The notes beneath the pieces were generated by a model. That model did no database searches. It was not told where the DNA came from and saw only the letters and a list, made by a program, of their open reading frames with translations. From positions 11,125,278 through 11,189,277 of the forward strand of contig CAIIXF020000008.1 of the NCBI GenBank assembly GCA_903813345.2: a stretch of 64,000 bases of DNA. The letters run 5' to 3'. Source of the DNA: Owenia fusiformis. Lineage: Eukaryota; Annelida; Polychaeta; Sabellida; Oweniidae. Numbering within the stretch: the stretch's first letter is position 1; each line of letters opens with the position of its first letter. This document shows positions 7,917 to 10,900 of this stretch, in pieces. Made by a program: the position numbers and the translations under genes.

Positions 7917-10900
7917 CCTACTTTCGTTTTGCGGAATGGCGCCGGAAGATGCACCGGAAAAGTAGTGGCCGCTTTTTCGGTAAAAAAAGACCCGATAACA
8001 AACCAAAAAGTGGCAATAAAGAGCAAGAATCTGTACATAAGAAAAATATCCGTATGTTGTCATATCCTGTGGTAGCTGTGTTTAATATACTAAGAGCAAT
8101 CGCCTTCCAACTTTGGATATTTTTGGACATCATATGCCGAAGTTCAACCGATCGATTTTTGACAGCACAAAAACAACAACCCGAAAAACCCCAAGAACAG
8201 AACATGGCACAGAGAAAACCAGAAATATTTCCGCAAGCTGCAGAACCAACGTTATTGAAACAGAAATGTCACCATAGAAAAGCATTTGAGTACATATCTA
8301 AGGCCTTGAAGATCGACGAACAACAAGAGCAGAAGGGTGAGTTTGGGCACAGTTTTATCCTGTTCTATTTTTAGATTATTCACATTGTTTACAAACACAA
8401 CCACGTGGCTTGTGTCCAGGTATGGTTGTGATTCATAGTCATTTTCTCCAAATATTGATTATTGTCAAACCATGTGATGCTGATGTTTTATCCACAATAA
8501 ATACAATTGCAAATACTTTCCGCCAGAAAGCAGATTGATTTACAACCATATGAAGAAATTTCTGATGTGAATATGGAGAATTCTGATGTTTCGAGTTCTC
8601 ATATGCCTGTCATTGAAACAGATATGATAGAAGATGCCACGGGTGATGGCAACGTTAATGCAAGTTCAGTGGATGCACATACAGCCATTTGTGATACTAT
8701 AAATACTTTTAATGATATAAACATTAAAACACAAAAATCCCATCACAAAAATGCATATAAATATGTTTCAAAAGCACTGAAGATTGATGAAACAATGGAT
8801 GATCAACTCAATAGAGGTAAGAGGAGGCATCAAAAAATAAATGGGGTAAACCAATTAAGTTCAGGGGTTTCGATACTGAAACGTTTTCCATACATATGAA
8901 TTCAGCCTTATAAAGTAACCGAAGGCCTAAATGGTTTATCTTCTGAACCAAAGAAACAAATATTGTTATAATCTGGTTTCTGTTTCTTTTAGTAAATCTG
9001 AAATAAAACATTACACTGACTTTTTGGCTCGATAAGTTGAAAATTATTCGGCAAGAAAATCTCCAACCGTGTTTATAACATGTCAAAAGCAAATAGAATG
9101 TAGAGTCGTCATTACATTTCACCTGGTGATGATGAGACTATTTCTATATGCTACGATAAAATCAATATACAGATTCAGGTAACAGTGTCAAAATAACTTT
9201 TTACAATGGAAATTACTGCTCTGCTGCAATGAGATTATCACACTTCTATGCTATAAATTGTGAAAATGAATGTGTGGTTGAATTAAGAAAACTGATAAAC
9301 AGATTCAGTTTATATTACTTGATCAATACTCTGCAAGTATAGGATTATAACAATTTGAATTAATATGCGGGCAGGTATAACATTCTATGTAAAAGAGAAA
9401 TTACCTGTAATAATTAATCTTAGAGACTTTAGTATACATAAGTTTGTGTTAATTCTCAGCAGATATTCGTGATCTACTGTACTAAGAGTTGTTATGTAAT
9501 AAAGAAATATACATACTGTATGCAGGAATGGAATGATTTAGATAATGAAAGAAAAGAAATGAATTGTTTAGCTAGCTGTAAAATGTTCCCTAATCAATAA
9601 TATGTATTTGGATCATATACAAATTGACCATTGACCGGTCAATTCCCAGTTGCCTAGTTTGACTTATTGACCGCAATGCCATACAGGGTCACGTTCTGAG
9701 TTATTGACTATAGTCCTTTGACTTTAGTGCAAGGCATGAATTGTAATATAGGCATGTTGTTTCATGAGTTTTTTCAGATTGAGGTTTATTATTCTTTACT
9801 AGTCCCCAGCATGATGAAACTTACTTAAGTAAGTCTCATCCAAAATGGTGGACTAAATTTGTTGGATATTGATAAACCTTCAATTTCAGCCAAACCATAT
9901 AAAATCTGGTTTCAAAATATTTCGCGAATAAAATTTCAGTTGTAAACAACTACAAAGAAATGTTCAATCAGCTTTACTTAGCATGAAATTAACTGTAATG
10001 GATGATGAGACTTAAACTTGATATTCACCAATGATGAAACTAACTAGAGATTTACAATATATTCTTCCCATAGAGTTAGTCTCAATTTCCCCTGCTAGAG
10101 TTTGATATTGTATGATAGAATATAATGTTTACTTCATTTTTACGATATCATGGGATGCCATTGCCTAATTTTGGCAATGGGGTGGAGCAGTTCATTTTTA
10201 TAAGAAATTTAAAGATTTCTACACAATTTTTTAACTCAAAAGGTGCTTATTTGCAGATAAAATGAACTAGCACATGCAATGGCAATATCACTCATGCTTT
10301 TGCAGGAAATTTGTAGGAAGCCTATATGATCTAATACAAAGTTATTGAAAAAGATGTGGACGTCCTTCACTTGGAATGGTTGTTTGTTTTTTATTTCAAA
10401 ATTAGTTGACGACATCCTGCGATATTGACCAAACCAAATATACATTTTCAGGCTATAAGGAGCAAGCCATAGAGCTGTATAAGAAAGGCATTCATGAACT
10501 GGAAAAGGGCATTGCAGTAAATGTGCAGGGACATGGTAAGGCATAGCTATTTGTTTGTACAGGATTCTTAAGACCTTCATCATGTTCTCTATAACTTAAA
10601 CCTAGTTATCTGTTTATCATTTGTCTTCCCGCAAATCTGATTGTGTTGAGATTTTTATGTGACTTTAAACAGAACATTTACCTTGCATGATAATAAGGAA
10701 AACTCACATTTGATCTTATTACCAAAGATGATGATGAGGCTAATAGAATATTAAGTGATATTGACATTCAAATACCATTTTGTTGTGGCCTCCCTTGAAA
10801 TGAATCAAGTGAGTGCCCACTTGGGATTTTGAAAATAATCCTCCTGAAAATTTATGTATGAAAATGACAACAAAATTTGAATATTTTAACCAATTTTTGT

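What the first reader, a model, noticed from the sequence alone, without database searches (positions are those of the whole stretch)
8573..8816. Spastin with two alternative first exons, one lacking the membrane hairpin but repeating the MIT start
Seen: an open exon with its own well-placed ATG and a phase-1 donor encodes a second version of the first MIT helix ([12 protein letters not shown] versus [12 protein letters not shown]) and no hydrophobic segment. Known: vertebrate spastin makes membrane (M1) and soluble (M87) forms from one exon by alternative starts. Inference: here the same split is made by exon duplication, so the soluble form has its own N-terminus and slightly different MIT helix, possibly with different ESCRT-III partners.
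Basis: partly seen in the sequence, partly recalled or inferred. Interest (0 to 1): 0.75.

Follow-up and report, generated by a model that had tools for sequence, protein, structure and literature searches.

The report
Spastin gene with duplicated first exon
An animal gene for the microtubule-cutting protein spastin carries a second, apparently intact start exon that would give a form without the membrane anchor and with a slightly altered partner-binding helix; whether it is used in cells is not yet shown.

Summary
The window contains a complete spastin gene (+ strand, 7913-30199, 14 exons on the main path). Between exon 1 (1a, with the membrane hairpin) and exon 2 lies a second ATG-initiated exon, 1b (8573-8816). 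Its end repeats the first MIT helix: 14 of 21 residues identical, score 81 against 36 for the next place in the window and at most 42 in 8 shuffles. It has a strong donor (28 of 3404 GT sites, itself included, score as high) in phase 1, the phase of 1a, and no hydrophobic stretch. The two helices differ mostly at third codon positions, a pattern reached by 0-4 of 4000 neutral-decay simulations per setting. So 1b is most likely a real alternative first exon giving a soluble spastin.

The duplication need not replace alternative translation: 1a still has a weak first AUG and a strong-context in-frame AUG (8204) after the hairpin. Human SPG4 already has a dedicated promoter for its short form. 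A changed ESCRT-III preference is conjecture, although 1b has Tyr at the position of human Phe124, whose F124D change disrupts ESCRT-III binding. I had no transcripts and no related animal genomes, so expression, conservation and the promoter are untested.

The parts
7913..8336 (+). Exon 1a: first AUG, basic stretch, hydrophobic hairpin, linker, first half of the MIT domain; phase-1 donor
   Evidence: tblastn to human spastin (sequence recalled) 8027-8329, E=1.8e-10; hydropathy 2.05; donor GTGAGT
8204..8206 (+). In-frame AUG after the hairpin in 1a with A at -3 and G at +4: possible start of a soluble form from the 1a transcript
8258..8320 (+). MIT helix 1, copy in 1a
8548..8589 (+). Imperfect 21-bp tandem repeat holding a 6-codon upstream ORF (8550-8570, MKKFLM) and the 1b start codon
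8573..8816 (+). Exon 1b: alternative first coding exon, acidic hydrophilic leader plus second version of MIT helix 1; phase-1 donor
8729..8791 (+). MIT helix 1, copy in 1b (Tyr at the human Phe124 position)
10452..10535 (+). Exon 2, common acceptor for 1a and 1b (MIT domain continues)
16481..16564 (+). Exon 3, end of the MIT region
20207..30199 (+). Exons 4-14: 20207-20488, 21972-22180, 22936-23068, 23397-23536, 23942-24013, 24367-24442, 24628-24719, 28742-28821, 29109-29231, 29485-29555, 30036-30199 (stop): linker, AAA ATPase, lid, Vps4_C
   Evidence: Pfam AAA E=7.1e-39, AAA_lid_3, Vps4_C. Exons 4 and 5 (linker) rest on frame and splice sites; their similarity to human spastin is not significant

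Best explanation
8573-8816 is a genuine alternative first exon (1b) of a spastin gene. An old duplication of the end of exon 1 (MIT helix 1 with its phase-1 donor) lies about 470 bp downstream and has its own start codon and an acidic, hydrophilic leader. Transcripts beginning at 1a give a 677-residue spastin with the hairpin that in mammals targets ER and lipid-droplet membranes; transcripts beginning at or just upstream of 1b give a 617-residue soluble spastin with a complete MIT domain in which helix 1 differs (F to Y at the human Phe124 position, E to K beside it, I to V, and a helix 1-2 loop 3 residues longer than in 1a). The soluble form would sever microtubules and be recruited by ESCRT-III without membrane anchoring, and could enter mixed hexamers with the anchored form. 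Shown: gene, exon anatomy, phase, helix homology, codon pattern. Inferred: transcription, the 1b promoter, soluble localisation, hexamers. Conjecture: altered ESCRT-III preference.
For: Helix homology far above chance. Codon positions 1/2/3 identical in 18/17/8 of 21; dN 0.15-0.22 by three methods, dS undefined (saturated), 1.1 and 4.3. Simulations with 1a limited to synonymous changes and 1b neutral reach the observed joint pattern in at most 4 of 4000 runs at each of seven divergences; a simpler likelihood ratio test is weaker, p=0.024. The 1b donor scores 9.2, inside the range of the 13 other donors of this gene (4.7-10.9), and 28 of 3404 GT sites on the + strand, itself included, reach it. 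Both donors are phase 1. Start context aatATGg. Codon score of 1b in frame (-0.02) resembles 1a (-0.06) and beats its other forward frames (-0.45, -0.88); 13 of 732 control windows reach it. Four of five tested 1a-to-1b joins hit a stop, which favours alternative over joint use.
Against: No RNA evidence. No relatives: scans of viral and prokaryote collections confirmed none, as expected for an animal gene. The selection test rests on 21 codons. Among 835 overlapping stop-free control windows, 98 reach the codon score. 1b plus exon 2 matches other spastins less well than 1a plus exon 2 (50.6 against 69.1 bits to 6p07). A 6-codon upstream ORF ends 2 bases before the 1b AUG and could reduce its translation unless the transcript begins after 8550. 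One in-frame 1a-to-1b join exists, with a poor acceptor (8556, score -2.2).
Confidence: 0.7

Rival explanations
1. 1b is a dead or dying duplicate: a relic of exon duplication that still looks open and spliceable but is not used.
For: No transcript evidence; Pfam finds nothing in the leader (residues 1-52) at E up to 1; 1b is more diverged from other spastins than 1a; small local duplications do occur in this gene: the exon 12 acceptor region is repeated 65 bp upstream.
Against: Third positions much changed while positions 1 and 2 are mostly kept; the neutral simulation seldom reproduces this; start, frame, donor and phase are all intact.
Confidence: 0.17
2. 1b is used, but as a second exon behind an upstream non-coding exon under the 1a promoter or another one, so the choice is made by splicing and not by a separate promoter. 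The protein product is the same.
For: Two fair acceptors lie upstream of the 1b AUG: exon start 8375 (score 7.6) and 8420 (6.6), in the range of this gene's 13 acceptors; the in-frame stop at 8498-8500 (the open stretch begins at 8501) would make the extra stretch 5' UTR.
Against: No upstream non-coding exon was recognised; AG sites of that strength are not rare (65 and 105 of 3154 score as well).
Confidence: 0.1
3. 1a and 1b are joined in one transcript, giving a spastin with two copies of MIT helix 1.
For: Using an acceptor at 8556 the frame stays open.
Against: That acceptor scores -2.2, below all 13 acceptors of the gene (-0.6 to 12.6); the four other joins tested run into a stop (five of the nine candidate AG sites listed were tried). 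A doubled helix 1 does not fit a three-helix MIT domain (inference).
Confidence: 0.03

Closest known systems
Vertebrate spastin M1/M87 (zebrafish M1/M61) by alternative start codons in exon 1
   Same: Anchored and soluble spastin from one gene; weak context at the first AUG (PMC6141775 and PMC9294387, passages); exon 1 ends inside the MIT domain in the same place (human boundary recalled)
   Different: Here the soluble form also has a separate exon with its own leader and own helix 1; the human M87 residue itself is Thr in 1a (LTAQK against LMAAK)
Cryptic promoter in human SPG4 exon 1 (PMC2474578, abstract and passages)
   Same: Transcript-level production of the short form
   Different: The human start lies inside the same exon and leaves the MIT sequence unchanged
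C. elegans spas-1
   Same: A spastin without the N-terminal extension exists (PMC4395272, passages); two verified isoforms (PMC12867548, figure legend passage)
   Different: No duplicated helix-1 exon is described in the passages seen
Alternative 5' cassettes of chelicerate Dscam (PMC4835542, search listing and abstract start only)
   Same: Several homologous 5' ends in one gene (as far as the listing shows)
   Different: Arrays of cassettes there; here one diverged copy, with only the 3' part of the exon homologous

Membership tests
Spastin (AAA microtubule-severing ATPase) | AAA ATPase, lid and Vps4_C domains | tested here: met
   Isoform A: Pfam AAA E=7.1e-39, AAA_lid_3 1e-08, Vps4_C 2.9e-06; isoform B likewise
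Spastin (AAA microtubule-severing ATPase) | Closest to spastin among related AAA proteins | tested here: met
   phmmer of isoform A against PDB: the first 10 rows are spastin chains (best 601.6 bits; one of them labelled CG5977-PA, recalled to be fly spastin), next Fidgetin-like protein 1 at 349 bits (best 60 of 89 shown). 52% identity to human spastin over 641 columns (A), 55% over 565 (B); human sequence recalled
Spastin (AAA microtubule-severing ATPase) | Spastin-type MIT domain | tested here: met
   phmmer of exon 1a or 1b plus exon 2 puts four spastin chain sequences first; the Pfam MIT model is below its cut-off for A (19.8 against 30 bits) and not listed at E 0.001 for B
Spastin (AAA microtubule-severing ATPase) | Microtubule severing | not testable with these tools
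   Needs protein
M1-type (anchored) spastin | N-terminal hydrophobic hairpin | tested here: met
   Isoform A: yes; isoform B: no
M87-type (soluble) spastin | Full MIT domain without hairpin | tested here: met
   Isoform B, by sequence only
Vertebrate M1/M87 mechanism | Second strong AUG in the same exon after the hairpin | tested here: met
   AUG 8204 in 1a, not at the M87 column
Alternative first exon | Own start codon, compatible donor phase, common acceptor | tested here: met
Alternative first exon | Own transcription start and spliced RNA | not testable with these tools
   No transcript data
Mutually exclusive duplicated exons | Homology over the whole exon and similar length | tested here: not met
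   Homology limited to about 61-73 bp; lengths 424 and 244 bp

The most novel reading that the evidence does not exclude
In this lineage the choice between membrane-bound and free spastin is moved from translation to transcription: a duplicated first exon gives the free form its own promoter, its own acidic leader and a helix 1 with Tyr and Lys at the positions of human Phe124-Glu125, so the two forms are controlled separately and read ESCRT-III tails differently.
Probability: 0.3. Interest if true: 0.62.

Novelty: new variant of a known kind. Interest (0 to 1): 0.45.

Why it matters
Anchored and soluble spastin have non-overlapping roles in zebrafish motor neurons (PMC6141775, passages), and the shared exon makes them hard to separate genetically. 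A lineage with a separate exon for the soluble form would allow each form to be removed or tagged on its own, and the natural F-to-Y, E-to-K variant of helix 1 would test how the MIT groove chooses between IST1, CHMP1B and CHMP3.

Tried and rejected
Looked for relatives of exons 1a+2 in viral contigs (3 pattern matches, none confirmed) and of 1b in viral (5, none) and prokaryote contigs (77, none). No whole genome is held for the window. Searches of the open-access paper library for spastin with 'alternative first exon' (2 papers), 'exon duplication', 'mutually exclusive exon', an invertebrate/oyster combination (20 listed of 554) and spas-1 isoforms listed no paper whose title or abstract start describes a duplicated spastin first exon; most subscription papers and preprints are not in that library, and I did not read these papers whole. 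No tRNA and no Rfam family at gathering threshold in the window.

Rejected: chance similarity; a recent duplication (nucleotide homology does not reach the flanks); duplication of the whole gene inside this window (each other exon with a significant tblastn match had one, apart from the 65-bp repeat at exon 12, whose upstream copy is weak, E=16; exons 4 and 5 had no significant match to judge by). A first neutral control that put all 20 differences at random on one sequence (4 of 20000 reach 14 kept residues) is too easily passed because 1a is itself constrained; I rely instead. One search set the 1a start 3 bases late (its 1a translation begins after the Met); corrected to 7913 from then on. 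Metagenome scans had a cap of zero and were not tried.

Full report
What is there. The + strand of the window carries a complete spastin gene from 7913 to 30199. I located exons by tblastn with human spastin (sequence recalled) and fixed boundaries by splice sites and frame; linker exons 4 and 5 have no significant similarity to human spastin and rest on frame and splice sites. The main path has 14 exons and encodes 677 residues (isoform A), with AAA, AAA_lid_3 and Vps4_C domains, 52% identical to human spastin over 641 columns. Against solved structures the first ten rows are spastin chains (best 601.6 bits), followed by Fidgetin-like protein 1 (349 bits). The hydrophobic hairpin of exon 1a aligns with the human one and has a maximum 19-residue hydropathy of 2.05.

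The second first exon. At 8573-8816, between exons 1a and 2, is an ATG-initiated exon with donor GTAAGA. Both 1a and 1b end in phase 1 and join in frame to exon 2 at 10452. Isoform B would have 617 residues. Its last part repeats MIT helix 1: 14 of 21 residues and 43 of 63 bases identical. In six frames of the whole window the 1a helix scores 113 on itself, 81 on 1b and 36 on the next place; maxima in 8 shuffled windows were 23-42. The 1b leader is acidic (net charge -9 over its first 52 residues against +12 in 1a) with no hydrophobic stretch, and Pfam recognises nothing in it at E up to 1.

Is it alive? For: the 1b donor scores 9.2, within the range of this gene's 13 other donors, and 28 of 3404 GT sites, itself included, reach it. 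Codon positions 1, 2, 3 of the helix are identical in 18, 17, 8 of 21. When 1a is allowed only synonymous changes and 1b evolves neutrally without stops, 3, 4, 3, 1, 1, 0 and 0 of 4000 runs at seven divergences show both at least 13 third-position differences and at least 14 kept residues; a simpler likelihood ratio gives p=0.024. The in-frame codon score of 1b is close to that of 1a and above its other frames; 13 of 732 control windows reach it. Against: among 835 overlapping stop-free control windows 98 reach that score; the open frame length alone is not remarkable (132 codons; 8 stretches of 130 or more in the window, 0-2 in each of 10 shuffles); the selection test rests on 21 codons; there is no transcript and no relative. 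1b plus exon 2 matches other spastins less well than 1a plus exon 2 (50.6 against 69.1 bits to 6p07), and the weak Pfam MIT match of 1b plus exon 2 covers only its exon 2 part.

How it probably works. Most likely a transcript starting at or just before 1b gives a spastin without membrane anchor. I could not decide between a separate promoter and an upstream non-coding leader exon: two fair acceptors (exon starts 8375 and 8420, scores 7.6 and 6.6) lie upstream, while the AG sites nearest the AUG are poor. Joint use of 1a and 1b is unlikely: of five joins tested (nine candidate AG sites) four run into a stop, and the fifth needs an acceptor scoring below all 13 of the gene. The 1b AUG is in good context (aatATGg), but a 6-codon upstream ORF ends two bases before it; both start codons lie in an imperfect 21-bp tandem repeat.

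Exon 1a keeps the arrangement known from vertebrates. Its first AUG has a weak context (ctcATGa), a 9-codon out-of-frame ORF with G at -3 and +4 begins 23 bases later and ends at 7965, and an in-frame AUG after the hairpin (8204) has a strong context (aacATGg). So soluble spastin could also come from 1a, though the human M87 position itself is Thr. In human SPG4 the short form already has its own transcript from a cryptic promoter inside exon 1 (PMC2474578, abstract and passages), and a poor first-AUG context is reported as highly conserved among vertebrates (PMC6141775, passages). The novelty is therefore the duplicated helix and separate exon, not the existence of two forms or of transcript-level control.

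The helix change. Human Phe124 lies in the H1/H3 groove; F124D disrupts binding to CHMP1B and IST1 and inhibits CHMP3 binding (PMC9477494, passages). In pull-downs F124A abolished CHMP1B and reduced IST1 binding (PMC6856053, passages; the authors give it as data not shown). By alignment 1a has Phe and 1b has Tyr there, followed by Lys where 1a has Glu. Tyr is a mild change, so binding is probably kept (inference); a shift in preference is conjecture.

Organism. Not identified. A TALE-type homeobox gene lies at 51899-53110 (-) (Pfam Homeobox_KN E=8.9e-08), with the start of a near-copy at the window end. Duplicated TALE genes of the SPILE group are described in molluscs (PMC8524836, title, abstract start and passages). 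This hints at a spiralian animal, but I did not test SPILE membership.

Verdict. Observation confirmed; interpretation partly supported. A new variant of a known kind, of moderate interest until RNA or a second genome is seen.

Noticed in passing
window 29021-29126: The intron end and the first coding bases of spastin exon 12 are repeated 65 bp upstream (copies from 29021 and 29086); the upstream acceptor would shift the frame, so it looks like a local duplication that could cause mis-splicing.
   Followed up: partly
window 51899-53110 (-) and 63586-64000 (+): A TALE-type homeobox gene in one open stretch of 404 codons and the beginning of an inverted copy at the window end (95.7% DNA identity over 415 bp; 116 of 125 residues identical; 5 synonymous and 9 non-synonymous codon differences). 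Possibly a SPILE gene pair.
   Followed up: partly
window 7936-7965: A short out-of-frame ORF (9 codons) in good start context begins 23 bases after the first spastin AUG, recalling the upstream ORF described for human SPG4.
   Followed up: partly
window 8548-8589: Imperfect 21-bp tandem repeat that contains both the upstream ORF start and the 1b start codon: the 1b AUG may have been copied by slippage.
   Followed up: partly
window 27241-28632 and 56409-57800: Two copies (89% identical over about 1.4 kb) of a tandem array with a unit of about 136-148 bp, one inside a spastin intron and one downstream of the gene.
   Followed up: no
window 38973-40437: Direct tandem duplication of about 730 bp, 98.5% identical.
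   Followed up: no
window 13828-14682 (-): Open stretch of 285 codons with hydrophobic segments (judged by eye) inside spastin intron 2 on the opposite strand; no Pfam match at E 0.1. Possibly a nested membrane-protein gene.
   Followed up: partly
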